Shown: piece after piece, positions 3,954 to 27,033 of the stretch
Layout of the letters: the number at the start of each line of letters is the position of its first letter
Position numbering within the stretch: position 1 is the stretch's first letter
Assembly (NCBI GenBank): GCA_016795505.1
Contig: JAEUHH010000107.1
Location: 1-64,000 of the forward strand
Reading direction: 5' to 3'
Origin: Verrucomicrobiales bacterium
GTDB lineage: Bacteria > Verrucomicrobiota > Verrucomicrobiia > Verrucomicrobiales > DEV007
DNA length: 64,000 nucleotides
Position numbers and translations under genes: made by a program
Notes under the pieces: generated by a model
Databases searched by the model: none
What the model was told of the DNA's origin: nothing
Seen by the model: the letters and a program-made list of their open reading frames with translations, nothing else

Positions 3954-4010
3954 CCATGCAAGACTATCCCAAAAACCGATCCGGGGAGAACCCAACGGCT
4001 CCCGCCTCGA

Positions 4011-6823: not shown

Positions 6824-8485
6824 ATGCCGCGTCGCTTTGTGCCCATTTTCTGGGCCGCCACGATGCCGTTTTTCGCGCATGGTCAGGAAGCACCGCCCGA
6901 TTTGACGATGGAGTTGGAGGCGGCAAAGGCTTCGGCCGAAGCCGCCGGAGCCAGCCTCGACGGCGAGGATGCCGCAGCAGAGCCGGTCTTTTACGTGAGA
7001 CAGTTCCGGGTGCGTGGGTCGAATCGGCTCACGGCGGAAGAGATCGAGAAGGCCGTCTATCCGTTCACCGGCCCGGCTCGCAATCTCTCCGATCTGGAGG
7101 GCGCGCGCGCCGCTCTGGAAAAAGCCCACCACGACAAGGGCTTCCAAACCATCGGCGTCGACATTCCCCAGCAGAATGGCACCCGCGGCATCATCTATCT
7201 CAATGTGGTGGAGAACCCCGTCGGCCGCCTGCGGGTCCGGGGCGCCAAGTTTTTCCTGCCCAGCGAGATCAAGCGGGCCGCCCCATCCCTCGCTGAGGGC
7301 ACGGTGCCGGATTTCAATCAGGTGCAGCAGGACATCGTGAACCTCAACACCTGGGCTGACCGCCGGGTAACGCCCTCGCTGCGCCCCGGGGTGGAGGAAG
7401 GAACCGTCGATGTCGATCTCAACGTCGAGGACAAGCTTCCGCTTCATGGCAGCATCGAGCTGAACAACCGTTACAGCCCCGACACGACGCCGCTGCGGGT
7501 CAACGGCTCCATCAGTTACGACAACCTCTGGCAAAAGGGTCACAGCATTGGCTTCTCGACCCAGCTCGCTCCGGAGCGGATCGAGGATGCGGAAATCTAT
7601 TCGGCCTACTACATCGCCCGCTTTGCGAAGCTGCCCAGCTTTTCCCTCATGCTGATGGGCACCAAGCAAAACAGCGACGTGTCCACCCTGGGCGGCGCCG
7701 CCGTGGCGGGCCGTGGCCAGACCATGGGCTTGCGCGGGATGTGGTCGCTGCCGGCGAAGGGGATCTATTTCCACACCATCAGCGCCGGCTTCGACTACAA
7801 GAGCTTCGACGAGGACATCACCATCGGTGAAGAAAGCTTCTCCACCCCGATCGACTATTACCCGTTTACCGTCGCCTATGGCGGCGGCTGGACCGGGGAG
7901 GACTACTTCACGGAGATCAATTCCTCGGTCAGCTTCAACCATCGCGGCACGGGCAGTGATCCGACCACCTTCGACGCGAAGCGCTACCTCGCCGATGGCA
8001 GTTATTTCCATTTCCGCGGCGACCTGTCCCATACCCACGACCTGCCCCTCGATTTCCAGGTGTTTGGAAAGGCCCAGGCCCAGCTCAGCAACGATCCGTT
8101 GATCAACAGCGAGCAGTTTTCCGGCGGCGGCGTCTCCACCGTGCGCGGTTATCTGGAGTCGGAAGCCCTCGGAGACAGCGGTTGGTTCCTGACTGCCGAA
8201 CTGCGCTCCCCTTCCCTCATCCCGAGTTCCGTCGAGGATGCCGCGGGCGAACCGAAGAACGAGTGGCGCTTCTACGGCTTCTGGGACGGCGGCCGCCTTT
8301 ACCAGAACGAGGTGCTACCCGAGCAGATCGATCTGTTCGAACTTTCCAGCGTGGGCGTGGGCAGCCACTTGCGCCTGTGGGACCACTTCCAGGGCTACGT
8401 CGACGTCGCCTGGCCTCTGTTCGACCAGACTGTCACCCGCTCCGGCGATCCCTTCTGGAGCTTCCGGGTCAAGGCCGACTTCTGA
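6824..8485 (+). CDS. TpsB-type outer-membrane translocator (FhaC/ShlB family)
   Basis: This encodes 553 residues from the chosen ATG at 6824, where a signal peptide begins (MPRRFVPIFWAATMPFFAHG). In-frame starts at 6764 (GTG) and 6770 (ATG) would add about 20 residues. After a short linker come POTRA-type domains: 'FYVRQFRVRGSNRLTAEEIE' at about residue 56, then a second from about 130 ('GRLRVRGAKFFLPSEIKRAA'). A ShlB-type 16-strand barrel follows, with the conserved loop motif VRGY ('STVRGYLESEALGDSG') and a C-terminal aromatic residue (KADF). TpsB proteins export a cognate TpsA across the outer membrane. The partner is very probably the 3767-residue TpsA encoded at 15730, an unusually distant arrangement with seven intervening genes. 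Confidence 0.88.
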   Translation: MPRRFVPIFWAATMPFFAHGQEAPPDLTMELEAAKASAEAAGASLDGEDAAAEPVFYVRQFRVRGSNRLTAEEIEKAVYPFTGPARNLSDLEGARAALEKAHHDKGFQTIGVDIPQQNGTRGIIYLNVVENPVGRLRVRGAKFFLPSEIKRAAPSLAEGTVPDFNQVQQDIVNLNTWADRRVTPSLRPGVEEGTVDVDLNVEDKLPLHGSIELNNRYSPDTTPLRVNGSISYDNLWQKGHSIGFSTQLAPERIEDAEIYSAYYIARFAKLPSFSLMLMGTKQNSDVSTLGGAAVAGRGQTMGLRGMWSLPAKGIYFHTISAGFDYKSFDEDITIGEESFSTPIDYYPFTVAYGGGWTGEDYFTEINSSVSFNHRGTGSDPTTFDAKRYLADGSYFHFRGDLSHTHDLPLDFQVFGKAQAQLSNDPLINSEQFSGGGVSTVRGYLESEALGDSGWFLTAELRSPSLIPSSVEDAAGEPKNEWRFYGFWDGGRLYQNEVLPEQIDLFELSSVGVGSHLRLWDHFQGYVDVAWPLFDQTVTRSGDPFWSFRVKADF

Positions 8486-8525
8486 TCCCTTTCCCAGCCT
8501 CTCAAGCATCCTCATCCGGCATCAC

Positions 8526-10553
8526 ATGATCCCGTACTCCTCCCGTCTCACCGGTCAGCGCCTCGTCGGCGCCTTCATCGCGACCGCCATCACCCTGATC
8601 GCATCCACCCTGCCCTCCCGATCCGCCGAGGCGGAAAAGGAAGACGGTGAAAAAGCCGCCTGGTGGGATGCCGCCTGGCAGGTGCGCAAACAGATCGTCA
8701 TCACCCCGGCTCCGGATTCCGCTCCGGTCACTCCGGCGGTCACCCTCCTGCGCCTTCACTCGGGCAACTTCCAGTTCGCCGCCGCCCGCGAGGACGGTTC
8801 CGACATCCGCATCGTCGCCGAGGACGGCAAGACCGTTCTACCCCACCACATCGAGCGCTACGATGCCCTGATGAACGAAGCCTTCATCTGGGTTCAGATC
8901 CCCGAGGTGAAGGAGGGCGCCCCCACCCCGGTCTGGCTTTACTACGGCAACGCTGAGGCTCCCGCCTATGATAAAAAGCCCGAGGAAACCTTCCCCGACA
9001 CCGCCCGTCTGGTTTACCACTTCACCGAGGCCACGGCCCCGGCCAGGGATTGGACGGGCAAGGGCAACAGCCCGGAAGCCGCCACCACCCCGACGGCCGG
9101 AGCCATGGTCGGACCGGGCATCGTCCTGTTCGGCACCACCGGCATTTCCATTCCCAATACCGAATCCCTCGCCTGGCTTCCCGGTGCCGAAGTCACTCTG
9201 TCCGTCTGGGTCAAGCCCTCGGCCAAGGCTCCGAATGCCGTGCTGCTCCGCCGGGAGGAGGGCTCGAACGCCGTCCGCCTCGGCGTCAATGACGGCGTTC
9301 CCTATGTCGAGATCGCCGATGCCGCAGGCACGGTCCGCACCACGCCCGGCGAGGCCATCGCGGAGTCGTCGTGGCGCCACCTCGCCGTGGTCTTCTCGGC
9401 GGGCAAGACCGACCTCTACGTGGATGGAAAACCCCATGGCACCGCCGCGAAGGGGCTGCCCGCGCTGGCCTCTCCCATCATCGTCGGCAGCACACCGGAA
9501 CTGGGCGGAGGCTTTGCCGGTGAGGTCGACGAACTCCAGATCCATGCCGCCGCCCTCCCCGCCACCGCCCTGCGCTACGCGGCCGTGAGCCAGTCCGGCA
9601 GCGCCGAGGGCCAGAAGCTGGTGGCGCTGATGGAAGACGAAACGTCCGGCGGTGGCGGTCACAATGAAACCCTGGAGCACGTCATGCTCTTTGGCGACAT
9701 CGCCCGCAACATGATGTTCGACGGCTGGATCGCCATCGGCATCTGCGTCATCATGATGTTCATGGGCGGCTTCGTCGCCATCAAGAAATTCCTCTACCTC
9801 AACAGCATTCAAAAAGGCACGGAAGCCTTCATGAAGCAGTGGTCCCGGGTGTCCAGTGACCTCACCGCCCTCGATCACCAGGACGAGGAGAGCATCAAGA
9901 ACATGGGAGGCTCCGTCAGTCCGCGCATGCTGAAACACATCCGCCGCTCCCCTCACTACCACCTCTACCACATCGGTGCCCAGGAGATCGCCAAACGCAT
10001 CAAGGAGCGCCATCTCGACGGTCTCTCCTCCCGGTCGATGCAGGCCATCCGGGCCAGTCTGGAGTCTGGCCTGGTCCGGGAAAACCACCATATGAACGGC
10101 GGGCTCATCTTCCTGACCATCAGCATCGCCGGCGGCCCTTATGTCGGTCTCCTCGGCACCGTGGTGGGCGTGATGATCACCTTCGCGCTGATCGCCAAGA
10201 CCGGCGAGGTCGAGGTGAACTCCATCGCTCCCGGTATCGCCAGCGCACTCCTGGCCACCGTGTTCGGCCTGCTCGTCGCCATCCCGGCGCTGTTCATCTA
10301 CAGCTACCTCAGCTCGCGGATCAAGGAGTTGCTCTCCTCCATGCAGATGTTCATCGACGAGTTCATCGCCAAGATGGCCGAGTGCTACCCGCCGTCCTCG
10401 GAAGCGGAGCATGTCCTCGAAGCCGATGAAGAGCCTCAAGCGGCAACCCCGGCACCCAAGGCTGCGCCGCGTGCCCAAAGCGCTCCGGCTCCCAAGGCGG
10501 CCGAACCGACTCCTCCTCTGCTCAACCCGAACCTCGAAGGCCATGCAAGCTGA
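8526..10553 (+). CDS. DUF2341-LamG-MotA/TolQ/ExbB fusion protein
   Basis: This encodes 675 residues from the ATG at 8526. A signal or signal-anchor (about 10-33) is followed by a DUF2341 domain (about 46-135; 'WWDAAWQVRKQIVIT' to 'VWLYYGNAEAP'). A LamG/concanavalin-like jelly roll comes next (about 150-345; 'SWRHLAVVFSAGKTDLYVDG'). The MotA/TolQ/ExbB channel domain (about 395-625) has three hydrophobic segments: 'WIAIGICVIMMFMGGFVAI', 'GPYVGLLGTVVGVMITFALI' and 'ALLATVFGLLVAIPALFIYS'. The tail is Pro/Ala-rich. ExbB conducts protons and powers TonB with ExbD; here it carries two extra domains predicted to be periplasmic, possibly a ligand sensor. It overlaps the exbD start by 11 nt, suggesting translational coupling. 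Confidence 0.87.
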   Translation: MIPYSSRLTGQRLVGAFIATAITLIASTLPSRSAEAEKEDGEKAAWWDAAWQVRKQIVITPAPDSAPVTPAVTLLRLHSGNFQFAAAREDGSDIRIVAEDGKTVLPHHIERYDALMNEAFIWVQIPEVKEGAPTPVWLYYGNAEAPAYDKKPEETFPDTARLVYHFTEATAPARDWTGKGNSPEAATTPTAGAMVGPGIVLFGTTGISIPNTESLAWLPGAEVTLSVWVKPSAKAPNAVLLRREEGSNAVRLGVNDGVPYVEIADAAGTVRTTPGEAIAESSWRHLAVVFSAGKTDLYVDGKPHGTAAKGLPALASPIIVGSTPELGGGFAGEVDELQIHAAALPATALRYAAVSQSGSAEGQKLVALMEDETSGGGGHNETLEHVMLFGDIARNMMFDGWIAIGICVIMMFMGGFVAIKKFLYLNSIQKGTEAFMKQWSRVSSDLTALDHQDEESIKNMGGSVSPRMLKHIRRSPHYHLYHIGAQEIAKRIKERHLDGLSSRSMQAIRASLESGLVRENHHMNGGLIFLTISIAGGPYVGLLGTVVGVMITFALIAKTGEVEVNSIAPGIASALLATVFGLLVAIPALFIYSYLSSRIKELLSSMQMFIDEFIAKMAECYPPSSEAEHVLEADEEPQAATPAPKAAPRAQSAPAPKAAEPTPPLLNPNLEGHAS

Positions 10554-10941
10554 CGGCGGCAAAAGCTACGACGACATCAACGTGACGCCCATGGTGGACC
10601 TCTACCTGGTGCTGTTGCTCATCTTCATCATCATGACCACCGCCGGTGTGCAGGGGATCAAGGTGGACCTCCCCAAAGGCAGCAAGGCTCCCGCCATCGG
10701 CGGTCCCAAGGGCAAGGCCGTGACCGTCAACGACGAGGGCAAGATCTTCCTCGATACCGTGCCGGTGACTTTGGAAGAGCTGGAGACGCGGCTGAGCGAA
10801 CACAAATCCAAGCACGAGGACTTTCCCATCGTCATCCGCGGCGATGGCGGCACCCAGTACCAACAGGTCATGTCCGTGCTCGATGTGGTCGGCCGCGTCG
10901 GCATCACCAAGATCGGCATGGCCACCCAGGCTCCCAAGTGA
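10543..10941 (+). CDS. exbD: ExbD/TolR family proton-channel subunit
   Basis: This encodes 132 residues. The ATG at 10543 lies inside the end of the ExbB-type gene. The single N-terminal membrane helix 'MVDLYLVLLLIFIIMTTAG' carries the family's essential aspartate (Asp19). The periplasmic part ends with the usual 'FPIVIRGDGGTQYQQVMSVL' fold. The length is close to that of typical ExbD proteins. With the preceding ExbB and the following TonB it forms a complete energy-transducing module dedicated to this locus. Confidence 0.92.
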   Translation: MQADGGKSYDDINVTPMVDLYLVLLLIFIIMTTAGVQGIKVDLPKGSKAPAIGGPKGKAVTVNDEGKIFLDTVPVTLEELETRLSEHKSKHEDFPIVIRGDGGTQYQQVMSVLDVVGRVGITKIGMATQAPK

Positions 10942-10977
10942 GCCGGGCCCGGCGGATTTCATCGAAACACCATCGAC

Positions 10978-11697
10978 ATGAGCGATTACCATTTCGAAGA
11001 CGACGATTCCTTCCTGGAACGCCACGGCGGCAAAGTCGGCGGCGTCCTGTTCCTCGCGCTGGCGGGAGGAGCCGCCTTCTGGTTCGTGACCAAGGAGGAG
11101 AAACCCAAGAAAGCCGCGCCCGTGGCCATGATCGACATCATGCCGCTGCCACCTCCCCCTCCACCGCCGCCACCTCCTCCCCCGCCGCCACCGCCGGAGG
11201 AAACCCCGCCTCCTGTCGAGGAGGAGAAAGTCGAGGAGTTCGTCCCCGAGGAAATGCCCGAAGAGGCTCCCCCGGAGCCGGCTGCTGAGCCAGAGCCCGC
11301 CATCGGCACCAACAACGTCGGCGACGGTCCGCCGGACGGATTCGGTCTCCGCGCCGGTGGCGGCGGAGGCGTCTTCGGCGGCAAAGGCATCGGTGGCACC
11401 GGACGCAAGGGCGGCAGCAAGTTCGGCTCCTACGCCGGCAAGGTTCAAGCCGCCATCACCGATGCCCTCCGCAGCGACAAGCGCACCCGCAGCGCCGTGA
11501 TGAGCCTGGAAGTGAAAATCTGGGCCGACCAACTCGGCCGCGTCACCCGCACCCAACTGGTCAGCACCACCGGAGACACCGGTCTCGACAATGTCCTGCG
11601 CCAGGATGTCCTCGGCCGGGTCCGTCTGCCCGAGCCGCCTCCCGCCGACATGCCGATGCCCATCAATCTCCGCATCACCGCCCGCAAGGCGAACTGA
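10978..11697 (+). CDS. tonB: TonB-type energy transducer with 16-proline run
   Basis: This encodes 239 residues. A short cytoplasmic start is followed by a transmembrane helix at about 19-37. The periplasmic linker contains sixteen consecutive prolines encoded at 11149-11196, then a Glu/Pro-rich stretch and a glycine-rich region (about 120-145). The C-terminal domain (about 150-239) resembles TonB ('VMSLEVKIWADQLGRVTRTQ', then a conserved 'LRQDVLGRVRLPEPPP'). TonB spans the periplasm and passes proton-motive energy to an outer-membrane partner. The proline run predicts strong dependence on elongation factor P, a possible control point. It lies 36 bp after exbD. Confidence 0.88.
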   Translation: MSDYHFEDDDSFLERHGGKVGGVLFLALAGGAAFWFVTKEEKPKKAAPVAMIDIMPLPPPPPPPPPPPPPPPPEETPPPVEEEKVEEFVPEEMPEEAPPEPAAEPEPAIGTNNVGDGPPDGFGLRAGGGGGVFGGKGIGGTGRKGGSKFGSYAGKVQAAITDALRSDKRTRSAVMSLEVKIWADQLGRVTRTQLVSTTGDTGLDNVLRQDVLGRVRLPEPPPADMPMPINLRITARKAN

Positions 11698-11718
11698 TCC
11701 CCCTTTCCCGATTTTCTC

Positions 11719-13782
11719 ATGGCCATTTTCCTCCAGCGCTCCCATCGGGAGTTCCGCCTCCGGATCGTCAGCGTCGCGCTGCTCCCCTGCATCATGATGA
11801 CGGCTTCGCCTGCCCAGGATACTCCGCCGCCGGCCGAGCCCCAGGGTCCCCAGTACCCGCCCGTATTGCTGCCCGGTACGAAAGCCAATGCCGAAACGGC
11901 CACCGAAGCCGCCACCACACCGGCCAGCGCTACCGAAGCACCCGAAGCCTCAGAGAAGCCCGCTCCCGCCGAAGAACAGGCCGAGACTGCGGCTCCAGCA
12001 CCCGCCGAGCCTGCCGTCGATCCCGCTTTGATGCTGGAAGAGCCCCCGCCGCTGCCGCCCGGCTTGGTGGAGCCCGATCTGGGCGCCGATCCCACCCCCA
12101 CCGAGAGCGTGGTGATCAACCTGATCAACCGCCTCGTCCAACGCGGCGTGCTCACCCAGGGCGACGCCGCCGAACTCATCTCCCAGGCCGAGCGCGACGC
12201 CGCCATCGCCAACCAAAACGCCGAAGCCGACCGCATTCTCGCCGAGGATGCCGCCATGGCCGCCGAGACCGATGTCGTCGTCACCCACATCCCCGCTCCG
12301 CTCAAGGAGCAGATGCGCGAGGAGATCAAAGCCGAGGTCCTCGCCGCCGCCCGCGATGAAGGCTGGGTGAATGTCGACAAGATACCCGAATGGGTGAACC
12401 ACTTCGAATTCTTCGGCGACTTTCGCGTCCGCTACTCGGGGAACCTCTTCCCAGATGGCAATGACACCACCGGTTCCTTCCCGAACTTCCACCGCATCAA
12501 CAGCGGTTCGCCTTTCGACGTGGCCGGCTTCGAGTTCTCGCCACAGCTCAATGTAGATGAGGAACGCCACCGTTTTCGACTGCGCACCCGGCTGGGAGCC
12601 GCGATCCGCCTCGACGAGCACTTCAGCGCCGGTATTCGCCTGGCCACCGGCAACGACAACAGCCCGGTCTCCGCCAACCAGACGCTCAGCGGCAATTTCA
12701 ATCGCTACCCGATCTGGCTTGACCGCTCCTTCCTGAAATGGGAGGCCCACGACGACCGCACCGATCTCACCCTCATCGCCGGTCGGTTCGACAATCCCTT
12801 CTTCCGGGTCAGCGAGATCCAGTGGGACAACGACCTCGGCTTCGATGGCTTCGCGCTCGGCCTCGCCCACGAGATCACCCCCGGTGTGACGCCCTTCTTC
12901 AACGGGGGCATCTTCCCCATCTTCAACACCGGCTTCAACTTCCCCGACAACATGCCGGACAAATATGAGAGCACCGACAAGTGGATCTACGGCGCCCAGT
13001 TCGGCGTCGATGTGAAAGGGAAGGAAGATGACGTAAATGCGAAGTTGGGCGTGGCTTACTATGACTACGACAACGTCCAGGGCGAGCTCTCCGAGCCCTT
13101 CATTCCCTTCACGGCGAACGACGCCGGCAGCACCGACAACCTGCGTCCCTCCTACGCACAGAAAGGGAATACCTACATGGCCCTGCGCGACATCGTTCCC
13201 GATGCCCTCAATGGCTTCGGCACCCAGAACCAGTGGCAGTACTTCGGTCTCGCATCCGACTTCAACGTGCTCAGCTACAACGCCAAAATCGACCTGAATC
13301 ACTTCGAGCCGCTACAGATCAGCCTGCTCGGCGAGTTCGGCAAGAATCTGGGCTTTGATCCCGAGCAGATCGATCCTATCGCCGTCAACAATCGCGGCCC
13401 CATCCCGCCCCCCGATCCCGTCGATCCGAACGCACCCGTCGATCCCAACGCGCCCGCCCCGCCGCCCGCGGTCGGAGCCTTCGAGGGCGGCAACGAGGCC
13501 TGGAGCCTGGCCATCCAGTTTGGTCACAGCAAATTCGAGAAGGCCGGCGACTGGAACACCGTTTTTGGCTATCGCTACGTCGAGTCGGATGCCTACGTCG
13601 ACGGCTTCACCGACTCCAACTTCGGACTCGGAGGCACCAACATGGAGGGCTACACCGCCTCTCTGGGCATCGCCCTCTCCCCGAGCGTGAACATCAACTT
13701 CCGCTGGATGGGCGCCAACGAGATCGCCGGTCCTCCGCTCAAGACGGATGTCATCCTCATCGACCTGAATGCCAAGTTCTGA
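11719..13782 (+). CDS. putative outer-membrane porin (Porin_5-like)
   Basis: This encodes 687 residues. Residues 1-33 are a signal peptide. Residues 35-110 are Ala/Glu/Pro-rich, followed by a helical segment at about 125-205 ('INLIRLVQRGVLTQGDAAEL'-like, with many Ala/Glu). From about residue 225 the sequence alternates as a beta-barrel ('HFEFFGDFRVRYSGNLF', 'RHRFRLRTRLGAAIRLDEHF') and ends in NAKF, a typical outer-membrane C-terminus. The layout (helical N-domain, then barrel) matches the 'putative porin' family. It lies 21 bp after tonB in the same operon, so it could be the outer-membrane protein that TonB contacts. No plug domain or clear TonB box is visible. Confidence 0.82.
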   Translation: MAIFLQRSHREFRLRIVSVALLPCIMMTASPAQDTPPPAEPQGPQYPPVLLPGTKANAETATEAATTPASATEAPEASEKPAPAEEQAETAAPAPAEPAVDPALMLEEPPPLPPGLVEPDLGADPTPTESVVINLINRLVQRGVLTQGDAAELISQAERDAAIANQNAEADRILAEDAAMAAETDVVVTHIPAPLKEQMREEIKAEVLAAARDEGWVNVDKIPEWVNHFEFFGDFRVRYSGNLFPDGNDTTGSFPNFHRINSGSPFDVAGFEFSPQLNVDEERHRFRLRTRLGAAIRLDEHFSAGIRLATGNDNSPVSANQTLSGNFNRYPIWLDRSFLKWEAHDDRTDLTLIAGRFDNPFFRVSEIQWDNDLGFDGFALGLAHEITPGVTPFFNGGIFPIFNTGFNFPDNMPDKYESTDKWIYGAQFGVDVKGKEDDVNAKLGVAYYDYDNVQGELSEPFIPFTANDAGSTDNLRPSYAQKGNTYMALRDIVPDALNGFGTQNQWQYFGLASDFNVLSYNAKIDLNHFEPLQISLLGEFGKNLGFDPEQIDPIAVNNRGPIPPPDPVDPNAPVDPNAPAPPPAVGAFEGGNEAWSLAIQFGHSKFEKAGDWNTVFGYRYVESDAYVDGFTDSNFGLGGTNMEGYTASLGIALSPSVNINFRWMGANEIAGPPLKTDVILIDLNAKF

Positions 13783-13793
13783 CCTCATTCGTC

Positions 13794-14561: not shown

Positions 14562-14578
14562 CCATTCCCCCCGACTTT

Positions 14579-14594
14579 GTGACGAAATGGTCAC
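14579..14594. promoter_or_regulatory. operator-like palindrome GTGAC-N6-GTCAC, copy C
   Basis: A perfect 5+5 inverted repeat with spacer GAAATG lies in the 124-bp gap between the coiled-coil gene and the isomerase gene. It suggests a second promoter inside the secretion cluster, driving the isomerase and TpsA. Confidence 0.5.
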
Positions 14595-14685
14595 CCGGCA
14601 ACGCGTCACGACCGTGGCCCCAGCGACCATCACCCTCGTCAGAACCCACGCGACTCTACCGAACCTGACAATCATCCGACTATCC

Positions 14686-15672: not shown

Positions 15673-15676
15673 CCGG

Positions 15677-15727: not shown

Positions 15728-15729
15728 AC

Positions 15730-18700: not shown

Positions 18701-21700
18701 CGACGCTGCGCGGTTACTCGGGGGCGACAGGCGGGTCTTTGAGTCTGACGGCCCCCGCCTTCCACATAGGAAACAGCCCGGCCGGGGACCCGCGGATCAT
18801 ATCGCTGACGCCCGACTTCTTCAGCACAGGTGGATTCGCTGATTTTTCGCTCACCGGCATCGGCCTGGCCATACCGGGCACGGATCGGTTCATCCCCGGC
18901 GTCAATATTGCACCCGGAACCCGCATCCGCCCGGTCGCCGAGAGTTTCCTCGCCATCCCCCACGCCCCCAACGGCGGAGGCCTGCAGCTGATTCCGTTTG
19001 AGAAGCCGGAAGGTCTCCGCAGTCCGGTGAATCTGACCTTTGCCGCCACCGGAGCGAATGATTCCTTCGCGGGAGGACTGCCCATCATCCGCGGCGATGT
19101 GGTGCTGGGCGCCAATGCAGAGATTGAGACGGACGGCCTGGGCAGTGTCACGCTGCGGGGCCAGACCGTGACCGTGCTCGGCTCGGTCCGAGCTCCCGGC
19201 GGTCGCATTACGGTGTCGGGGGCGAACAGCTTCCCGGTTACCTCTGGAGGCGGCGGGAATTTCCCCCTCACGACCGTCTATATCGGCTCACAAGCTCGTC
19301 TTGATGCCTCTGGAAAGAGCATCATCCGAACCGGTCGCAATGGCTGGCGGGAGGGCCTCATCCTCGCCGGCGGATCGATCTCTGTCGCCGGCAACATCGT
19401 GGCTGAACGCGGGGCGGTGCTCGATGTCTCCGGCACTTCGGGCACTCTCGATCTGCCCGCCACCTACCTCGCCGTCGATGCCAAGCCGATCACGGGTTTG
19501 AAGGGTACCCAGTACGTGCCAGTGAGGATAGACACGAATGGGGGCAGCATATCCCTGGCGGGGGGCCAGATGCTTTACACCGACGCCACCCTGATCGGTC
19601 GGGCGGGTGGGCCCTCGGCCATCGGCGGCTCTCTCACCGTCTCGTCGGGACGCTTCCTGCTCCCGGGAGTGGAATCCAACACCGCAGAGGCCAACCTCAT
19701 CGTCACGCAAAGCGGCCTCACCCTACCCGACTCACCTTTCGCCCGTGGCATCGGCCTGCCTGTGCGCGCCCGCGACGGCAGTGTTCTGCCCGGAATCGGC
19801 AATTTCACCGCGGACCGATTCTCTGCGGGCGGATTCGACTCTCTGACTCTCGGGGGCAATGTGAGATTCCAGGGTCCCGTGAACATAGAGGCGCCTGGGA
19901 GCCTCCGTGTGGCCACCGGGGGAGTGATCTATGCCGACAACCGGGTGCAGTTGGCAGCCCCCTATGTGGCCCTCGGCCAGGCTTTTCGCACCCCAGCGTT
20001 GGCCGGAGACACCGAGGTGTTGTTCACCCGAACCACCGCAAATGGCGACACGCTCCCCTACACCTTTGCTCCCACCTGGGGAACGGGTAGCCTGATCGTT
20101 CGCGCCGACCTGTTGGATATCGGGAATCTGTCCCTCCAAGGGATCGGAAACGCTCGATTCCTGGCCCCGAAAGGAGATATCCGGGGCAACGGCACGCTCA
20201 ACATCGCTGGCAACCTGTTCTTTGAAGCCGGACAGATCTACCCGACGACGCTCAGCCCGTTCAATATCTTCGCCTACGATTACAATCCGGGTGGCGGCCT
20301 CCAGAACGGCACGGTGACCATCGCCGGCGGTTCCAGCCGCTCCCTGCCGCTCTCTGCCGGCGGCACCCTCACCATCAATGCATCGGAAATCCATCAGGGA
20401 GGCACCCTCCGGGCCCCGATTGGCGCGATCCAACTCGGTTGGGACGGATCCGGCACCGCTCCGGTCGATCCACTCGCAGGCAGCTCGATCGGCCAGCCAG
20501 TGACCAAGCAGCTCACCCTCGCCTCGGGCAGCGTGACTTCGGTGGCAGCGGTGGACCCGCGGACCGGCGCCGGCATTCTCATCCCCTACGGCATTTCCTT
20601 TGACGGAAACTCCTGGATCGATCCCGCCGGCAATGACATCACCGTCGGCGGTGTGCCAGCGAAGTCGATCCGCCTGTCCGGCCAGAGCGTGACGACTGAG
20701 TCCGGCTCGACAGTCGACATCCGCGGCGGCGGCGACCTCTACGCCTACCGATGGATCCCGGGCAACGGCGGCAGCCGAGACATCCTGGCGTCCTCGACCA
20801 GTTTTGCGGTGATTCCCGGCTTCGGGTTCAACTACGCGCCCTACGGCGCCTTCAATAACCGGGGATCGGCCGTCAATCTGGCGGGCGAGCCCGGCTATGT
20901 GAATTCTTCCCTCCGTCCCGGTGATCAGGTCACGCTGGGAGCGAGTTCCGGCCTGCCCGCGGGAACCTACACGCTGCTGCCGGCCCGCTATGCCCTGCTG
21001 CCGGGAGCCTTCCTCGTCACGCCGCTCAGCGGAGCTCCCGTGGGATCTTTTGCGCTTCCCGATGGCTCCAGCATCGTTTCCGCTTACCGGGCGAACAATC
21101 TCGACAGCGACCGCGAGGGCCGTACCCGGATGATTCGTCTCGAGGTCGCGCCCGGATCGGTGGTCCGCCAGCGGGCCGAGTATCAGGATTTCTTTGCCAA
21201 TGCCTTCCTTCGCGACGCCGCCCTCGCCCGCGATTTCACTCCGCCTCGCCTGCCGGTCGATTCAGGCTACCTCGCTTTCTCAGCCACCGCCGCCATGGCG
21301 ATCGCCGGCGAGGTGCTGTCCACGCCGCCCCGGGGAGGTCGCGGCAGCCTCATCGACATCAGCAGCCCCATTGACATTGTCATCAATGCCGATGGATCCG
21401 GCGGCCTGCCCGGCACCCTCACCCTCGCCGCATCAAAGCTCAGCGGATTCAATGCCGAGAGTCTCCTCATCGGCGGCTTGCGGACCTTCGGCACCGGAGC
21501 GAACGCAGGGACCGCCACCGTCAACGTGACCACGGGCAACATCACGGTGAACAATGCCGGATCGCCCCTGTCGGGCACGGACATGATCCTCGCTGCCAAG
21601 GGGGCCATCACCCTCGCTCCCGGCGCAGAGATTCACGGCACCGGCTCAGCCGATCTCGACCGTCTGATTATCGGTGATGCCGCGGTGGCGGGCAGCGGCG

Positions 21701-24700
21701 ACGGTTCCCTGCTGCGCGTGGCAGGATCGCAGGACGCCCCCGTGACCCGTCTTGGAGTGGGAAATTCCATCTTGCCCGCGATGAACATCGGCGCCGGCGC
21801 CAGCCTGACCGGTGGCAGCCTCACGGTGGACAGCACCTTCGCCACCAATCTCAATCCCACCGCCACCCTCACGGCGCCGACGATGGCCCTCAACAGTGGC
21901 CAGATCAGCGTGCAATTGAACAATCCCGGCGCCCTCAATCCCACCGTCGGACTGGTGCTCTCCGGCCAGGCGCTGGCTTCCCTGCAAGATTCGGCCCGCG
22001 ATCTATCGCTGCTCAGCTACTCGACGTTCGATGTTTATGGCAACGGATCGGTCGGATCGCGGAATCTCGACCGCCTCGCCATCCAGGCCGGCGCCATCCG
22101 GGGTTTCAACACGGGTGGCGGCACTGCCACCTTCACTGCCCGAGATCTGCTGCTGGAAAACACCACCGGCCGCACCGTGACGGCGCTCCCGGTCAATCCC
22201 CTCAACGGCAAACTCGCCTTCGACGCCAACCAGATCACGCTCGGAGCAAATGCCCTCCGGGTGGAACGTTTTGCGACCGTCGAGATGTCCGCCGACACCC
22301 GCTTGATCACCACCGGCACGGGCTCTTTTTCCACCACCGGCGCGCTCGACCTGATCACCCCGGTCATTACCGGGGCAGGTGCCTCGCGCCACAGCCTCAC
22401 ATCCGGCACTGCCCTGCGTTTGATCCGTCCGGCCGGAGCCTCCCCCGGCACGGCCGTCGGCGGCCTTGGCGCCGACCTGACCCTGCAAGGCTCCACCCTC
22501 GAAGCCAACAGCGACATCCTCCTGCCCAGCGGACGGCTTACTTTGCGCGCCACCACGGGAGCCCTCTCGGTGGGCAATCTCGCGCCCGCCCGCATCGACC
22601 TCGCCGGCGTCAGCCGCGGCTTCCTCGATGTCACCCGCGACACCGATGGCGGCACGGTGAATCTGGAAGCCGACAATGGCTCCATCACTCTCGGCGCCAA
22701 TGCCACGATCGATGTATCAGCTCCCGCCACCGGCGGGAATGCCGGCGCCATCAATGTGCGGGCTCCGAATGGCTCCGTCGCGCTCGGCGGCTCCATTCGC
22801 GGCACGGCGGCGGCCGGCCAGCGCGCCGGTTCCTTCACTCTTGATGCCGGCTCCCTGCCCGGAGGCAATCTCGGTGCGACCGATGCCATTCTCAACGCCG
22901 GACAGTTCAATGAGCAACGCGAATACCGTGTCCACACCGGCAACCTCACCATCGATGGACTCGCCCGCGCCCGGACCTACCGGGCCTTCGCGGACAATGG
23001 CTCGATCACCGTGAGCGGCACCGGTTTCATCGACGCTTCGGGCGTCACCGGAGGTGACATTGAATTGAGCGCCAAGGGCAGCCTGATCGTCCAGTCGGGT
23101 GCGCGCCTGGATGCGTCGGGACAGCAGTTCGACGCCGCCGGTCAGGGCGGATCCATCTTCCTTGGTGCCGGCGCCACCCGGAACGGCGTTATCGACACCA
23201 CCGCCACACTCGATGTCCGGGCCGGCTCGACGCTCTCGCTGGGAGTGGCCGCCCTCAATGCGGACAGCGCGCGGAATGGGCAGTTCACCGGTACGCTTCA
23301 TCTTCGCGCCCCGCAGAATGCCGCCTTCACCGATGTCCTCATGGCACCCATCGGAGGCACCATCAGCGGAGCCTCCAGCATTCTGGTCGAAGGTTACCGC
23401 CTCTACGACCTCACCGCCACGGGAGGTGCCCTGACCAATGCCGTGCGCGACAGCCTCCTGACCAATGGGAACAACTTCATCGGCTCGTCCGGCGTCGCGA
23501 ATGCCAACTACACCGCGATGCTGAACCGCGTGCGCTCCCTCCAGCCCGGACTCGACCTGATCCTGGCACCCGGCGCCGAGATCCTCAACCGCAATGGCAG
23601 CCTGGCCATGGGGTCCACCGCATCGGCCACCTCGGCGGACTGGAACCTCGGCACCTTCCGCTTCGGTCCCCGGTCGGCTCCCGGAGTGCTGACGATGCGC
23701 GCGTCCGAAAATTTGGTCTTCTTCAATGCCCTCAGCGACGGTTTTTCCGGCGGCACCAGTCTGTGGCTCTCGCCGCTGAATGCCCACAATCCTCTGCTAC
23801 CGGCCAACACCCAGTCGTGGAGCTACCGCCTCGCCGCCGGTGCCGACACCAGTTCAGCCAACTTCCGCGCCCTCCGTCCTCTGGGCAGCCTCGCTGCCGA
23901 CATCGGTAATCTCCAACTCGGCAAAAACGCAGGTGCCGCTACCGCTTCAGGAGGAGCGAATGCCCAGACATCTTCGGTGGTCGGGAACAACTTCCAAGTC
24001 ATCCGAACCGGCTCCGGAGATATCGACATCGCGGTGGCGCGGAACGTCCAACTGCTGAACCCCTTCGCCGCCATCTATACCGCCGGCACCGCGGTTCCTT
24101 CCGCCACCACCGTGGTCAATCCGGGTGATTTCTCCCTGCCAAACCTGAACTCCACCCTCGCTCAGGTAGCCCTCGGCGCCCGGCAGCAGATCTATCCCGC
24201 CCAATACAGTTCAGCCGGGGGTAACGTCAATATTTTCGCCGGCGAGAACATCGAGCGCAAAACCCGCAACAATTCCGGTCTGATCGACGACTCCTCCCGC
24301 CAGTTGCCGAACAACTGGCTCTACCGCCGCGGTCATGTCGGTGCCGATGGCAACTTCGGATTGGTCAACATCGGTTCCTTCACCGATCCCAATGCCACCA
24401 CCACCTGGTGGGTCGATTTCTCGAACTTCTTCCAGAGCGTCGGCGCCCTCGGCGGAGGCAATGTCACCCTCGCGGCCGGCAACGATGTGAAGAATGTCGA
24501 TGCCGTCATCCCCACCAACGCCAGGGCTGCCATCGGGGCGCCAGCAAACTCCTTCCTGCTCGAGCTCGGCGGCGGCGACCTCGTCGTCCGCTCCGGCAAC
24601 GATATCAATGCCGGCATCTACTACGTCGAAAGAGGCCGCGGCGCCCTCACCGCCGGCGGCTCCATCGTCACCAACGAAACACGCTCTCCCTCCCTCGGCA

Positions 24701-27033
24701 TCATTGGCAACCTGAACAATCCATCTGCCTTCCGCTTCGACTCCAACACCTGGCTGCCCACCACCTTGTTCGTGGGGCGCTCGTTCTTCGATGTCTCTTC
24801 CCGAGGGGATGCCCTGCTGGGCCCCATCACCAACACCTTTTTGCTTCCCCAGAGCGTCAACAACCGTTTCTACTACAAAACCTATTTCAATACCTTTGGA
24901 TCCGACAGTGGTGCCTCCATCACGTCTCTCGGAGGGGACATTACCTTCCGAAATGCCATCACTACTACCGACACCACCTCACCACGAAACATCCTCAGCA
25001 CCTGGTACAATTCCCAGCAGGTATTCCGGGCCACAGCCGGGACGGATCGTGCTTCCTTCTTCCAGCCCTGGCTCAGGCTGGCGGAGTCGTCGGTTGATCC
25101 CTTCGCGACCACCTTCCTGCTCCAAAGTCCCAACGTGTTGGCCACCGCACTGTCCGGCGATGTTAATCTCCAGGGCTCGCTCACCCTGTTCCCCTCGCCA
25201 ATCGGTCAGTTGGAACTCATCGCCGACGGCTCCATCAACGCCTTTCAGCCCACGGGGCTTTCGAATGTACGCATCCCCGGCCAGAGCGTTCAGATCTGGA
25301 CAGCCTCTTCACTCAACGTCTCCGACGCGAATCCCGCTTCCGTGCCCTCGGCGCTGTCGCCCTTCTCCTATTTCAGCGTGGCCGGTTCCAATGCCAGCGC
25401 AAATACGCTCACTCAGAGTGGCTTTTTCAATCCAGTCGCCAGCCTGTTCACTGAATCCGGCTCCACCACGGGCGCTTTCGCCGCCTCCGCCACCAAGCAG
25501 GCTCTGCACACTCCCGGCCTGCTCCACCTGGGCGATCCCGAGCCCATCCGCCTCTATGCGACCGGGGGAAATCTCTCCGGACTCCAGCTTTTCACCCCCA
25601 AGGCCACCCGCGTCCATGCCTCGCGTGACCTGACGGACATCGCCTTCTACCTCCAGAATCTCGCCGAGACGGATACCACCATCCTCACCGCGGGCCGCGA
25701 CATCGTACCCTACAATGCCGCCAGCCCCCTGCGCGCCCAGGCCCTCTCCTCCGGCAATGCCATCGCCAACAACGAGAATCCCCTCGCCGGCGACATCGTC
25801 ATCGGCGGTCCCGGCAGCATTCAGGTCCTCGCCGGCCGCGATCTCGATCTCGGCACCGGACCGAACAATGCGGACGGCACCGGCGTCGGCCTGTCGTCGG
25901 TCGGCAACAATCGCAACCCTTTCCTGCCCTTCACCGGAGCCCACATCGTCGCCGGTGCCGGCCTCGGCCCCAATACCAGTCTGCTCGGTAGCGATCTCGA
26001 TGTGCAGGGATTCATCGACGAGTTCGTCGAGGGCGGCAATGGCCAGACCTACCTTGCCGAGTTGGGAGTCACCAACTTCGACGCCCTTCCCGCCGAGGAG
26101 CAGGCCCGCGTCGCCCTGGAGGTCTTCTATCTCATCCTGCGCGACGCCGGTCGCGGCTTCAACGATCCCGCCAGCCCCGGCTTCGGCAATTACGACACCG
26201 GTTTTGCCGCCATCGAGGCCCTCTTCGGAGGAGGCGGCAGCGAGGGCGACATCCTCACCCGATCCCGCAGCATCCGCACCCGCAGCGGGGGCAACATTTC
26301 CCTCTTCGCTCCCGCCGGCGGACTCACCCTGTCGAATGCCCTCACCGCCGACAGTCTCGTCCCGCCCGGCATCGTCACCGAGTCCGGTGGCAACGTGAAC
26401 ATCTTCACCGATGGCAGCGTGGACATCGGCGTGGGCCGGATCTTCACCCTGCGCGGCGGCGACATGGTCATCTGGTCATCCACTGGCGACATCGCCGCCG
26501 GCACGGCATCAAAGACCGTCCAGTCCGCGCCGCCGACTCGCGTCATCATCGATCCCCAGAGCGCCACCGTCGAGACCGACCTCGCCGGCCTCGCCACCGG
26601 TGGCGGTATCGGCGTGCTAGCCACCGTCGCCGGCGTCGAGCCAGGCAACGTGGACCTCATCGCCCCCTCCGGCATCATTGACGCTGGCGACGCCGGCATC
26701 CGCGTCACCGGAAACATCAATCTCGCCGCCACCCAGGTGCTCAATGCCTCGAACATCGCCGTCGGCGGCTCCAGCGCCGGCGCCCCGTCCGCACCCGCCA
26801 TTTCCACCCCCAATGTCGGCGGCATCACCTCGGCCGGCAATACCGCCGCCGCCACCAGCAGCGCCGCCACCACCGCCAGCGAAGCCGCCCGCCAGCAGGC
26901 CGCCGCCCCCGCCATGGAGGAGGACACCACCCCCTCCATCATCACCGTCGAAGTCCTCGGCTACGGCGGCGGCGCTGTCGAAGAAGATGAGGAGGAGCGG
27001 AAACGGCGAGAGGAGGCATCGGGCAACCAGTGA
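15730..27033 (+). CDS. giant filamentous-haemagglutinin-like TpsA exoprotein
   Basis: This encodes 3767 residues from a GTG at 15730; the N-terminus holds a plausible signal peptide (about 1-36). A TPS secretion domain (Haemagg_act type) covers about 120-350 with the hallmark 'VYVINRNGIIFGAGSQVNAA', a variant of the NPNGI motif. The remainder is a very long beta-helix of repeated short strands, rich in Gly, Ser, Thr, Asn and Ala, with many 'GGSVTISAGN'- and 'SGSTVDIRGGG'-like rungs. Near residues 3455-3540 a conserved segment ('LRDAGRGFNDPASPGFGNYD', then a GDI...SRSI.TRSGGNI pattern) matches the DUF3739-type C-terminal region of large FHA-family proteins. The last about 25 residues are strongly charged. 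It is probably an exported surface fibre or adhesin moved by the TpsB at 6824. Confidence 0.88.
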   Translation: MNRPPATTHQPGGLAGQVLAWTAIAGLSMGNLRAGDILRGGAPAGDAARRSAAANQATAAAAAAARSSARDSLARTTGALNAVKAMQAAARAAAAGNNAGMNPNLPGTPLPNVPNGLTPGGLQVDPGVIGGTAVWSGATLPTQSQAAGRTTVNIKQTQQTALLSWQTFNVGRQTTLRFDQSSGGANTNKWIAFNKVNDPTGAPSQILGSIQAPGQVYVINRNGIIFGAGSQVNAATLVASSLPINDNLVQRGLLNNPDAQFLFSGLPIPAGTNGTPAFTPEPPNPAIGRYGDVIVQRGATLFSPSNEAKVGGRVMLVGPNVKNDGTIRTPDGQTILAAGLQVGINAHSSADPSLRGLDVFVGAIQEAGQPLYAGSVTNSGLIESLRGSVTMAGKDLNQFGAIESSTSVSLNGRIDLLASYDAVVNTAYDATNPLSQPFLNQRTGTVRLGRGSVTRVMPEYGSSETSIGTQLALRSQVNITGRAIHLAPESRIHAPSGQVNIRAGEWVLLGLGGTNPNSRFLQSVGQVYLDAGSLIDVAGTVDVSVPVTQNILSLELRGAEFANSPLQRAGVLRGATVNVDIRNRGIYNGFAWVGTPLADVAGFVGLIQRTVEEFTAPGGSVTISAGNSVVMQPGSKIDVSGGTIEYQGGFVQTTRLLSGGRLVDIKDATPDRVYDGIYEGKMVNSHDRWGITEVFDQPLALTGRHWENTYTHGAAGGSIAIQAPGMALDGGLIGRTVNGPRQREDRAALSSLKLTFLRENPSVNQFPLHAPTPPTVIFSDDFRQRMAGPFRLDATDNPLGLRADRLETVYLSPSLYTKSGFGTITVENNDGDFRLPEGVTLETPPGGGLTVKASNIGIAGSIFAPSGNLSFTAYNLPLDLVNSRPTVKPTASPSRGRFTLAPGAILSTAGLVADDRASSPVLMPISTSGGTVQISAFSASLAEGALIDVSGGAQMSPRGRVTYGNAGSISVAAGRDLNLDSVLGGTLTLGSTLRGYSGATGGSLSLTAPAFHIGNSPAGDPRIISLTPDFFSTGGFADFSLTGIGLAIPGTDRFIPGVNIAPGTRIRPVAESFLAIPHAPNGGGLQLIPFEKPEGLRSPVNLTFAATGANDSFAGGLPIIRGDVVLGANAEIETDGLGSVTLRGQTVTVLGSVRAPGGRITVSGANSFPVTSGGGGNFPLTTVYIGSQARLDASGKSIIRTGRNGWREGLILAGGSISVAGNIVAERGAVLDVSGTSGTLDLPATYLAVDAKPITGLKGTQYVPVRIDTNGGSISLAGGQMLYTDATLIGRAGGPSAIGGSLTVSSGRFLLPGVESNTAEANLIVTQSGLTLPDSPFARGIGLPVRARDGSVLPGIGNFTADRFSAGGFDSLTLGGNVRFQGPVNIEAPGSLRVATGGVIYADNRVQLAAPYVALGQAFRTPALAGDTEVLFTRTTANGDTLPYTFAPTWGTGSLIVRADLLDIGNLSLQGIGNARFLAPKGDIRGNGTLNIAGNLFFEAGQIYPTTLSPFNIFAYDYNPGGGLQNGTVTIAGGSSRSLPLSAGGTLTINASEIHQGGTLRAPIGAIQLGWDGSGTAPVDPLAGSSIGQPVTKQLTLASGSVTSVAAVDPRTGAGILIPYGISFDGNSWIDPAGNDITVGGVPAKSIRLSGQSVTTESGSTVDIRGGGDLYAYRWIPGNGGSRDILASSTSFAVIPGFGFNYAPYGAFNNRGSAVNLAGEPGYVNSSLRPGDQVTLGASSGLPAGTYTLLPARYALLPGAFLVTPLSGAPVGSFALPDGSSIVSAYRANNLDSDREGRTRMIRLEVAPGSVVRQRAEYQDFFANAFLRDAALARDFTPPRLPVDSGYLAFSATAAMAIAGEVLSTPPRGGRGSLIDISSPIDIVINADGSGGLPGTLTLAASKLSGFNAESLLIGGLRTFGTGANAGTATVNVTTGNITVNNAGSPLSGTDMILAAKGAITLAPGAEIHGTGSADLDRLIIGDAAVAGSGDGSLLRVAGSQDAPVTRLGVGNSILPAMNIGAGASLTGGSLTVDSTFATNLNPTATLTAPTMALNSGQISVQLNNPGALNPTVGLVLSGQALASLQDSARDLSLLSYSTFDVYGNGSVGSRNLDRLAIQAGAIRGFNTGGGTATFTARDLLLENTTGRTVTALPVNPLNGKLAFDANQITLGANALRVERFATVEMSADTRLITTGTGSFSTTGALDLITPVITGAGASRHSLTSGTALRLIRPAGASPGTAVGGLGADLTLQGSTLEANSDILLPSGRLTLRATTGALSVGNLAPARIDLAGVSRGFLDVTRDTDGGTVNLEADNGSITLGANATIDVSAPATGGNAGAINVRAPNGSVALGGSIRGTAAAGQRAGSFTLDAGSLPGGNLGATDAILNAGQFNEQREYRVHTGNLTIDGLARARTYRAFADNGSITVSGTGFIDASGVTGGDIELSAKGSLIVQSGARLDASGQQFDAAGQGGSIFLGAGATRNGVIDTTATLDVRAGSTLSLGVAALNADSARNGQFTGTLHLRAPQNAAFTDVLMAPIGGTISGASSILVEGYRLYDLTATGGALTNAVRDSLLTNGNNFIGSSGVANANYTAMLNRVRSLQPGLDLILAPGAEILNRNGSLAMGSTASATSADWNLGTFRFGPRSAPGVLTMRASENLVFFNALSDGFSGGTSLWLSPLNAHNPLLPANTQSWSYRLAAGADTSSANFRALRPLGSLAADIGNLQLGKNAGAATASGGANAQTSSVVGNNFQVIRTGSGDIDIAVARNVQLLNPFAAIYTAGTAVPSATTVVNPGDFSLPNLNSTLAQVALGARQQIYPAQYSSAGGNVNIFAGENIERKTRNNSGLIDDSSRQLPNNWLYRRGHVGADGNFGLVNIGSFTDPNATTTWWVDFSNFFQSVGALGGGNVTLAAGNDVKNVDAVIPTNARAAIGAPANSFLLELGGGDLVVRSGNDINAGIYYVERGRGALTAGGSIVTNETRSPSLGIIGNLNNPSAFRFDSNTWLPTTLFVGRSFFDVSSRGDALLGPITNTFLLPQSVNNRFYYKTYFNTFGSDSGASITSLGGDITFRNAITTTDTTSPRNILSTWYNSQQVFRATAGTDRASFFQPWLRLAESSVDPFATTFLLQSPNVLATALSGDVNLQGSLTLFPSPIGQLELIADGSINAFQPTGLSNVRIPGQSVQIWTASSLNVSDANPASVPSALSPFSYFSVAGSNASANTLTQSGFFNPVASLFTESGSTTGAFAASATKQALHTPGLLHLGDPEPIRLYATGGNLSGLQLFTPKATRVHASRDLTDIAFYLQNLAETDTTILTAGRDIVPYNAASPLRAQALSSGNAIANNENPLAGDIVIGGPGSIQVLAGRDLDLGTGPNNADGTGVGLSSVGNNRNPFLPFTGAHIVAGAGLGPNTSLLGSDLDVQGFIDEFVEGGNGQTYLAELGVTNFDALPAEEQARVALEVFYLILRDAGRGFNDPASPGFGNYDTGFAAIEALFGGGGSEGDILTRSRSIRTRSGGNISLFAPAGGLTLSNALTADSLVPPGIVTESGGNVNIFTDGSVDIGVGRIFTLRGGDMVIWSSTGDIAAGTASKTVQSAPPTRVIIDPQSATVETDLAGLATGGGIGVLATVAGVEPGNVDLIAPSGIIDAGDAGIRVTGNINLAATQVLNASNIAVGGSSAGAPSAPAISTPNVGGITSAGNTAAATSSAATTASEAARQQAAAPAMEEDTTPSIITVEVLGYGGGAVEEDEEERKRREEASGNQ

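What the first reader, a model, noticed from the sequence alone, without database searches (positions are those of the whole stretch)
6824..27033. Two-partner secretion locus with its own TonB-ExbB-ExbD motor, porin and chaperone
Seen: eight consecutive plus-strand genes encode TpsB, a DUF2341-LamG-ExbB fusion, ExbD, TonB, a Porin_5-like barrel, a periplasmic coiled-coil protein, a parvulin isomerase and a 3767-residue TpsA, with small gaps or overlaps. Known: classical TPS systems need only TpsA and TpsB and use no dedicated energy source. Inference: this locus is an energised export or surface-assembly machine in which TonB acts on TpsB or on the porin. TpsA and TpsB are separated by seven genes instead of being adjacent, which argues that the intervening genes are part of one system.
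Basis: partly seen in the sequence, partly recalled or inferred. Interest (0 to 1): 0.85.

Follow-up and report, generated by a model that had tools for sequence, protein, structure and literature searches.

The report
Energised giant-adhesin locus, Pdt type
These genes form one conserved unit, found in two bacterial phyla, that displays a giant surface protein and carries its own proton-powered motor, an outer-membrane pore and a phosphate-binding-like partner; it matches a P. aeruginosa cluster whose motor has never been tested.

Summary
In detail: eight plus-strand genes at 6824-27033 encode TpsB, a DUF2341-LamG-ExbB fusion, ExbD, TonB, Porin_5, a periplasmic coiled coil, a parvulin and a 3767-aa DUF3739 TpsA. 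Six genes, not seven, lie between TpsB and TpsA.

They form one system. In Verrucomicrobiota the order TpsB-ExbB-ExbD-TonB-Porin_5-coiled coil was kept in 41 of 41 uncut loci. The fusion occurs only in genomes with a DUF3739 TpsA (11 of 11, in 338 genomes). The same cassette lies on plasmids of alpha-, beta- and gammaproteobacteria. It has the gene order of the P. aeruginosa pdtB-exbB2-exbD2-tonB4-PA0696-PA0697-PA0699 operon, whose TonB system is published as uncharacterised. So the locus is not new in kind, but the motor's role is unknown.

New here: a secreted PstS-fold protein (window 4011-5246, minus strand) occurs in all 12 DUF3739 genomes and one other of 338. In 11 of the 12 it lies beside TpsA or TpsB. 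Phosphate-scavenging genes also flank the proteobacterial relatives. This moves the likeliest role from energised export to energised scavenging at the surface, with export or retention of TpsA close behind. TonB's target is unproven.

The parts
6824..8485 (+). TpsB outer-membrane transporter (POTRA_2 + ShlB/FhaC barrel)
   Evidence: Pfam PF08479 44.8 bits, PF03865 62.4 bits; cassette TpsBs form one branch apart from 13 of 14 other TpsBs
8526..10553 (+). ExbB with a periplasmic N-terminal DUF2341 + LamG (concanavalin-like) domain
   Evidence: PF10102, PF13385, PF01618 in one frame; full fusion only in DUF3739 genomes of the phylum sample
10543..10941 (+). ExbD, motor subunit; motif NVTPMVDLYLVLL with the proton-carrying Asp
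   Evidence: PF02472 94.3 bits; motif conserved in the 63-sequence alignment
10978..11697 (+). TonB-like energy transducer: one TM, about 50-residue Pro-rich stretch, TonB_2 C-terminal domain
   Evidence: PF13103 34.8 bits; TonB in 47/47 testable loci
11719..13782 (+). Porin_5 outer-membrane protein: Pro-rich N-terminus, helical periplasmic segment, about 16 predicted strands, no TonB-receptor plug
   Evidence: PF16930 609 bits over 2-535; low-confidence model with 16 strands, nearest solved folds are 16-strand porins
13794..14561 (+). secreted or periplasmic coiled-coil protein, counterpart in position of P. aeruginosa PA0697
   Evidence: no Pfam family; homologues in 43/43 testable loci and in Klebsiella
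14686..15672 (+). parvulin-type (PpiC/SurA-like) peptidyl-prolyl isomerase; optional member
   Evidence: PF00639 61.7 bits; present in 26/40 testable loci
15730..27033 (+). TpsA, 3767 aa, giant filamentous-haemagglutinin-type exoprotein (TPS domain about 16216-16455; DUF3739 26455-26787)
   Evidence: TIGR01901 63.7 bits; PF12545 105.5 bits; only DUF3739 in the genome
4011..5246 (-). secreted PstS-fold protein (411 aa, signal peptide), divergently oriented 1.6 kb upstream of TpsB; new associated part
   Evidence: profile A7 matches solved PstS1, E 5e-12; present in 13 of 338 genomes = all 12 with DUF3739 plus one
1831..3957 (-). secreted protein of a 'GDLLLGFQATGG' family, often PEP-CTERM in relatives; associated, less constant
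   Evidence: homologues at 21 of 80 TpsA-centred loci, 0 of 16 control TpsB loci
990..1748 (-). second, shorter member of the same secreted family
   Evidence: HMM match 293 bits
5505..6485 (+). secreted Sel1-repeat protein between the PstS-fold gene and TpsB; occasional associate
   Evidence: PF08238 128 bits; homologues beside TpsA in a minority of loci

Best explanation
This is a Verrucomicrobiota member of the Pdt-type two-partner secretion systems. TpsB exports a giant DUF3739 TpsA that stays at the surface (inferred from the family). The co-encoded inner-membrane motor (ExbB with a periplasmic lectin-like domain, ExbD, TonB) is predicted to use the proton gradient to work on an outer-membrane step of the same system. 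My leading reading is energised scavenging at the surface: TpsA and the linked secreted PstS-fold protein capture a phosphate-containing or similar ligand, and TonB drives its passage or release through Porin_5, or through Porin_5 together with TpsB. The coiled coil and parvulin would be periplasmic bridge and folding helpers. Shown here: the gene set, its order, its obligate co-occurrence including the PstS-fold gene, and conserved motor residues. Inferred: the ligand, the direction of transport and TonB's target.
For: Order kept in 41/41 uncut loci; TpsB 49/49, ExbD 49/49, TonB 47/47, Porin_5 43/43, coiled coil 43/43. The fusion occurs only in DUF3739 genomes (48/49). Full-length Porin_5 (580-657 bits) occurs only there, all other hits being at most 127 bits and partial. 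On 72,556 plasmids the fusion and Porin_5 occur on the same 11 records, all with DUF3739. The PstS-fold family occurs in 13/338 genomes, 12 of them the DUF3739 genomes, and its profile matches PstS structures. Phosphate context elsewhere: P. aeruginosa pdt genes are PhoB/Pi-starvation controlled (PMC4971064) and lie beside lapA/lapB and the hxc T2SS (PMC7035377, PMC9769906). In P. fluorescens SBW25 a 4083-aa haemagglutinin gene follows psp, a Pi-binding PstS-like exoprotein secreted by Hxc (PMC2225411). Methylomagnum has a PBP_like_2 gene just upstream of TpsB and phosphatases downstream of TpsA. Cupriavidus has T2SS and nuclease genes beside the cassette. The closest paralogous ExbBs in the phylum sit in TonB-dependent-receptor uptake clusters.
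Against: Porin_5 has no TonB-receptor plug and looks like an ordinary porin, so a TonB-driven step through it has no direct precedent. The PstS-fold proteins fall far below the NCBIfam PstS cut-off and phosphate binding is untested. The parvulin and the tight link of the motor to TpsB suit an export or assembly role equally well. No pho box was found near the cassette. Published single mutants of tpsA, tpsB, tonB4 and PA0696 had no zebrafish-virulence effect (PMC2729926), which says nothing on transport.
Confidence: 0.45

Rival explanations
1. Energised export or retention: TonB acts on TpsB (or on a TpsB-Porin_5 pair) to drive, gate or complete export of the giant TpsA, or to hold it at the surface, as the SiiAB proton channel does for the giant Salmonella adhesin SiiE.
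For: Motor, porin and coiled coil travel with TpsB even when TpsA lies elsewhere: TpsB 49/49, TpsA directly downstream only 32/40. A parvulin is in 26/40. No TonB receptor is in the cassette. SiiAB: collapse of the proton gradient lowers SiiE surface retention (PMC6272769). G296 has TpsB-TpsA-ExbB-ExbD-TonB-ExbD with no full-length Porin_5, and its TpsB is sister to the cassette TpsBs.
Against: Type V export is held to work without external energy (PMC5422565), and three other TpsB loci in the same genome have no motor nearby. This reading does not explain the obligate PstS-fold partner or the dedicated porin. The G296 motor may be the ordinary Tol/Exb set lying there by chance.
Confidence: 0.4
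2. The motor serves signalling or envelope maintenance: TonB transmits the state of TpsA/TpsB or Porin_5 inward (cell-surface signalling), or the set ties the envelope around a very large exoprotein.
For: Proteobacterial TpsA and cassette loci are preceded by STN-domain, ECF sigma and FecR genes; P. aeruginosa VreA has a TonB/TolA-like C-terminal domain (PMC2729926).
Against: No STN/ECF/FecR genes were found among the scanned window genes, yet the motor and porin are invariant in the phylum.
Confidence: 0.1
3. Chance neighbourhood of independent genes.
For: ExbB/ExbD genes are common in these genomes.
Against: 41/41 identical order; two phyla; 15 of 16 control TpsB loci have no motor gene within about 10 kb; tails of 9e-20 and 6e-43, not corrected for relatedness.
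Confidence: 0.01

Closest known systems
P. aeruginosa PUMA3-regulated pdt locus (pdtA; phdA-pdtB-exbB2-exbD2-tonB4-PA0696-PA0697-PA0698-PA0699)
   Same: Same order TpsB-ExbB-ExbD-TonB-porin-coiled coil-PpiC, co-transcribed there, TpsA at another position (PMC7035377; PMC4971064). The Klebsiella plasmid homologue was tested here: DUF2341-LamG-ExbB, Porin_5 685 bits, YbjN, Rotamase, DUF3739.
   Different: No YbjN gene between coiled coil and parvulin; no STN/ECF/FecR genes among the scanned window genes and no pho box near the cassette; TpsA directly follows the parvulin; a PstS-fold gene flanks the locus. P. aeruginosa protein sequences themselves could not be fetched.
P. fluorescens SBW25 hxc-psp-haemagglutinin locus (psp = DING/PstS-like exoprotein)
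   Same: A PstS-like secreted protein encoded next to a giant haemagglutinin gene (PMC2225411).
   Different: The passages read report no motor or porin there; the window's PstS-fold protein is a distant family.
Classical two-partner secretion (FhaB/FhaC type)
   Same: TPS-domain TpsA and POTRA/barrel TpsB.
   Different: Dedicated ExbBD-TonB motor, porin and coiled coil; classical TPS is described as needing none (PMC5422565).
Salmonella SPI4 SiiAB with the SiiE adhesin
   Same: A proton-channel pair dedicated to a giant surface adhesin (PMC6272769).
   Different: Type I secretion, MotAB-like pair, no TonB or porin; homology not tested.
H. influenzae HxuCBA
   Same: TPS pair encoded with a TonB-linked uptake component (PMC5422565).
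   Different: HxuC is a true TonB-dependent receptor; here there is none, but there is a complete motor.

Membership tests
Two-partner secretion (type Vb) | TpsA with N-terminal TPS domain | tested here: met
   TIGR01901 63.7 bits, cut-off 29.1
Two-partner secretion (type Vb) | TpsB with POTRA domains and ShlB/FhaC barrel | tested here: met
   PF08479 and PF03865 over cut-off; profile matches CdiB 6wim
Two-partner secretion (type Vb) | no dedicated energy source needed for export | not testable with these tools
   a motor is present; whether export needs it is unknown
Pdt-type locus | order TpsB-ExbB-ExbD-TonB-porin-coiled coil-PpiC | tested here: met
   window; published order; Klebsiella homologue
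Pdt-type locus | YbjN gene between coiled coil and PpiC | tested here: not met
   only 124 nt lie between coiled coil and parvulin; YbjN follows PpiC in Methylosinus and is not annotated after the coiled coil in Aquabacterium, so it is not constant
Pdt-type locus | control by VreAIR/PhoB (STN, ECF sigma, FecR, pho box) | tested here: inconclusive
   no such genes among scanned window genes; no pho box above chance; regulators may lie elsewhere
Pdt-type locus | sequence homology to P. aeruginosa PA0690-PA0699 | not testable with these tools
   no P. aeruginosa chromosome in the searchable annotated collections; homology shown here to Klebsiella, Burkholderia and Methylomagnum
TonB-dependent receptor system | receptor with plug domain in the locus | tested here: not met
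   no Plug domain in any of the eight proteins; the method finds one in the side cluster L144
PstS phosphate-binding protein (window 4011-5246) | PstS fold | tested here: met
   by sequence profile: A7 versus 4exl E 5e-12, 4ecf E 3e-8
PstS phosphate-binding protein (window 4011-5246) | NCBIfam PstS model over cut-off | tested here: not met
   TIGR02136 12.9 bits against cut-off 206.6; call it PstS-fold, not PstS
SiiAB-type adhesin control | homology to SiiA/SiiB | not tested
   used only as a functional analogy

The most novel reading that the evidence does not exclude
A distinct, cross-phylum class of proton-powered two-partner systems: a TonB motor works on a TpsB/plugless-porin outer-membrane complex together with a giant surface filament and a secreted PstS-fold protein, either to pull scavenged phosphate-type ligands in or to move and hold the filament. 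That would be the first type V system shown to be energised, or the first TonB-driven uptake without a TonB-dependent receptor.
Probability: 0.5. Interest if true: 0.85.

Novelty: new variant of a known kind. Interest (0 to 1): 0.62.

Why it matters
Type V secretion is taught as needing no energy source at the outer membrane, and TonB is taught as acting on 22-strand plugged receptors. This cassette challenges one of the two: an active-looking TonB motor is tied to a TpsB, a plugless porin and a giant exoprotein across two phyla, with no receptor. The P. aeruginosa relative has been on record since 2009 with its TonB system uncharacterised, so deletion of exbD or tonB in a cultured carrier makes the question testable. 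The PstS-fold partner gives a specific ligand hypothesis.

Tried and rejected
Energised export as an established conclusion: rejected, because nothing here shows that TpsA export needs the motor. TonB box on TpsB: the region before the POTRA domain is short and unconserved. On Porin_5 a conserved VRVTYIP-like stretch lies in the periplasmic linker, a lead only. Structure models: AlphaFold2 with 2-3 sequences gave mean pLDDT 44 (TpsB) and 40 (Porin_5); only strand count and fold class were used. A sequence-profile search found no solved relative of Porin_5. E. coli pho box: none beyond chance. Downstream hexapeptide/DegT/GT2 genes as TpsA glycosylation genes: no homologues in the other loci. 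G134 (L271) and G296 as further energised TPS loci: ExbB/ExbD lie near other TpsBs there, but such genes are common, so chance is not excluded.

Full report
WHAT IS THERE. The eight genes are present as described. From start codons and gaps: TpsB 6824-8485; DUF2341-LamG-ExbB 8526-10553; ExbD 10543-10941; TonB 10978-11697; Porin_5 11719-13782; coiled coil 13794-14561; parvulin 14686-15672; TpsA 15730-27033. Six genes, not seven, separate TpsB from TpsA. The window lies in a 6.5-Mb genome with a single DUF3739 protein, a single Porin_5 and a single DUF2341-LamG-ExbB fusion. Its relatives are Verrucomicrobiota.

IT IS ONE SYSTEM. In 338 genomes of the phylum, 12 have DUF3739. The full fusion is found in 10 of them and its ExbB half at a contig end in an eleventh, and in no other genome. 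The twelfth, G296, has a marginal DUF3739 and no fusion. Full-length Porin_5 (580-657 bits) is found only in the same 11 genomes; every other Porin_5 hit listed in the phylum is partial and at most 127 bits. In a second set, 48 of 49 DUF3739 genomes have the fusion; these include the isolates Chthoniobacter flavus, Brevifollis gellanilyticus and Haloferula sp. BvORR071. Profile searches over the fetched loci gave, counting only loci whose contig reaches far enough: TpsB 49/49, ExbD 49/49, TonB 47/47, Porin_5 43/43, coiled coil 43/43, parvulin 26/40, TpsA directly downstream 32/40. The order TpsB-ExbB-ExbD-TonB-Porin_5-coiled coil was identical in 41 of 41. So the motor, porin and coiled coil are tied to TpsB; TpsA may lie elsewhere, be on the other strand, or be duplicated (G334).

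CONTROLS. 60 of 338 genomes have a ShlB-type TpsB over the cut-off, most without this cassette. Of 16 control TpsB loci, three of them in the window's own genome, 15 have no ExbB/ExbD/TonB within about 10 kb. In a maximum-likelihood tree the cassette TpsBs of both phyla group together (100/97), apart from 13 of 14 controls; the exception, the G296 TpsB, is their sister. Hypergeometric tails are 9e-20 (phylum) and 6e-43 (plasmids). These ignore relatedness, but the DUF3739 genomes span eight families.

IT EXTENDS TO PSEUDOMONADOTA AND IS PARTLY KNOWN. Among 72,556 plasmid records, the fusion and near-full-length Porin_5 occur on the same 11 records, all among the 16 that carry DUF3739. Klebsiella quasipneumoniae carries TpsA-TpsB-ExbB-ExbD-TonB-Porin_5-coiled coil-YbjN-parvulin. 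Methylosinus, Cupriavidus, Aquabacterium, Burkholderia and Methylomagnum carry the same set with small changes. This is the order of the P. aeruginosa operon phdA-pdtB-exbB2-exbD2-tonB4-PA0696-PA0697-PA0698-PA0699 beside pdtA (PMC7035377; PMC4971064). The association of TPS, ExbBD and PA0696 was noted in 2009 (PMC2729926), and the TonB system is called still uncharacterised in 2020. I could not compare P. aeruginosa sequences directly.

A NEW PARTNER. The minus-strand gene 4011-5246, 1.6 kb upstream of TpsB, belongs to a secreted family whose profile matches solved PstS proteins (4exl E 5e-12, 4ecf E 3e-8). The alignment keeps short stretches resembling PstS ligand loops (STAF, SGSTxGI, FSD, GRNxxSGTR); equating them with phosphate contacts is from my own knowledge of PstS. 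In the 338-genome sample this family is found in 13 genomes: all 12 with DUF3739 and one other, G308. By coordinates it lies beside TpsA or TpsB in 11 of the 12; in G296 it is on another contig. It is absent from the 16 control loci. Methylomagnum has a PBP_like_2 gene just upstream of its TpsB (profile comparison E 3e-7). In P. fluorescens SBW25 a 4083-aa haemagglutinin gene lies downstream of psp, a Pi-binding PstS-like exoprotein secreted by the Hxc type II system (PMC2225411). P. aeruginosa pdt genes are Pi-starvation controlled and lie beside hxc and phosphatase genes. Methylomagnum has PhoX and alkaline phosphatase genes downstream of TpsA, and Cupriavidus has T2SS and nuclease genes beside the cassette. 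The common theme is phosphate scavenging; the evidence is neighbourhood, not biochemistry.

THE MOTOR. The ExbD motif with the proton-carrying Asp and the ExbB motifs GLLGTV and ATxGL are conserved, so the motor is predicted to be active. The glutamate that follows APGIA in E. coli ExbB (own knowledge) is not kept. The closest ExbB paralogues in the phylum (430-498 bits) sit in TonB-receptor clusters with ExbD, TonB, TPR and barrel genes. No plug-bearing receptor is in the cassette. Porin_5 is predicted, at low confidence, to be a 16-strand porin with a helical periplasmic N-terminus.

MECHANISM. Shown: gene set, order, obligate co-occurrence, conserved motor residues, PstS-fold partner. Inferred: TpsA is exported by TpsB; TonB acts on Porin_5, TpsB or both. 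I put energised scavenging slightly ahead of energised export/retention because of the PstS-fold partner, the invariant porin and the phosphate context in other lineages. Retention has a functional precedent in SiiAB-SiiE (PMC6272769). Against simple export stands the accepted energy-independence of type V secretion (PMC5422565) and the motor-free TPS loci in the same genome.

VERDICT. The locus is a real, conserved system and a Verrucomicrobiota version of the pdt gene cluster, with a newly recognised PstS-fold partner. Its claim of energised export is open and is no longer the leading reading.

Noticed in passing
G296 contig C55 (L153-L154), about 16675-26385 of the joined stretch, minus strand: A smaller TpsA (1515 aa, marginal DUF3739) follows its TpsB and is followed by ExbB, ExbD, TonB, ExbD, without full-length Porin_5; its TpsB is sister to the cassette TpsBs. 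Possibly a porin-free energised TPS, or a chance neighbour of an ordinary Tol/Exb set.
   Followed up: partly
G334 contig C7; L072, L100, L241, L247: Genes similar to type II secretion or pilus assembly components lie next to DUF3739 TpsA genes or the cassette in several Verrucomicrobiota and Proteobacteria, as hxc does beside pdtA in P. aeruginosa; none near the 16 control TpsB loci.
   Followed up: partly
L144-L152 (G252, G308, G179, G269, G317): A parallel cluster in the same phylum: a large outer-membrane barrel with TonB-receptor plug, a second large secreted protein, coiled coil, ExbB with a coiled-coil N-terminus, ExbD, TonB, TPR and a barrel. Its ExbB is the closest relative of the cassette ExbB.
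   Followed up: partly
window 27157-30220, + strand: A hexapeptide acyltransferase, DegT aminotransferase and GT2 glycosyltransferase follow TpsA directly; not found in the other loci. Could modify TpsA or the surface in this strain.
   Followed up: partly
window 990-3957, - strand: Two members of a secreted 'GDLLLGFQATGG' family; relatives beside other DUF3739 TpsA genes often end in PEP-CTERM-like sorting tails, which the window copies lack.
   Followed up: partly
Klebsiella plasmids NZ_CP084804 and NZ_CP065459: The cassette occurs on large Klebsiella plasmids, one typed as conjugative; in the second record TpsB was not checked.
   Followed up: no
Haloferula sp. BvORR071 (G369) and G372, G358, G362: Two separate copies of the cassette in one genome.
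   Followed up: no
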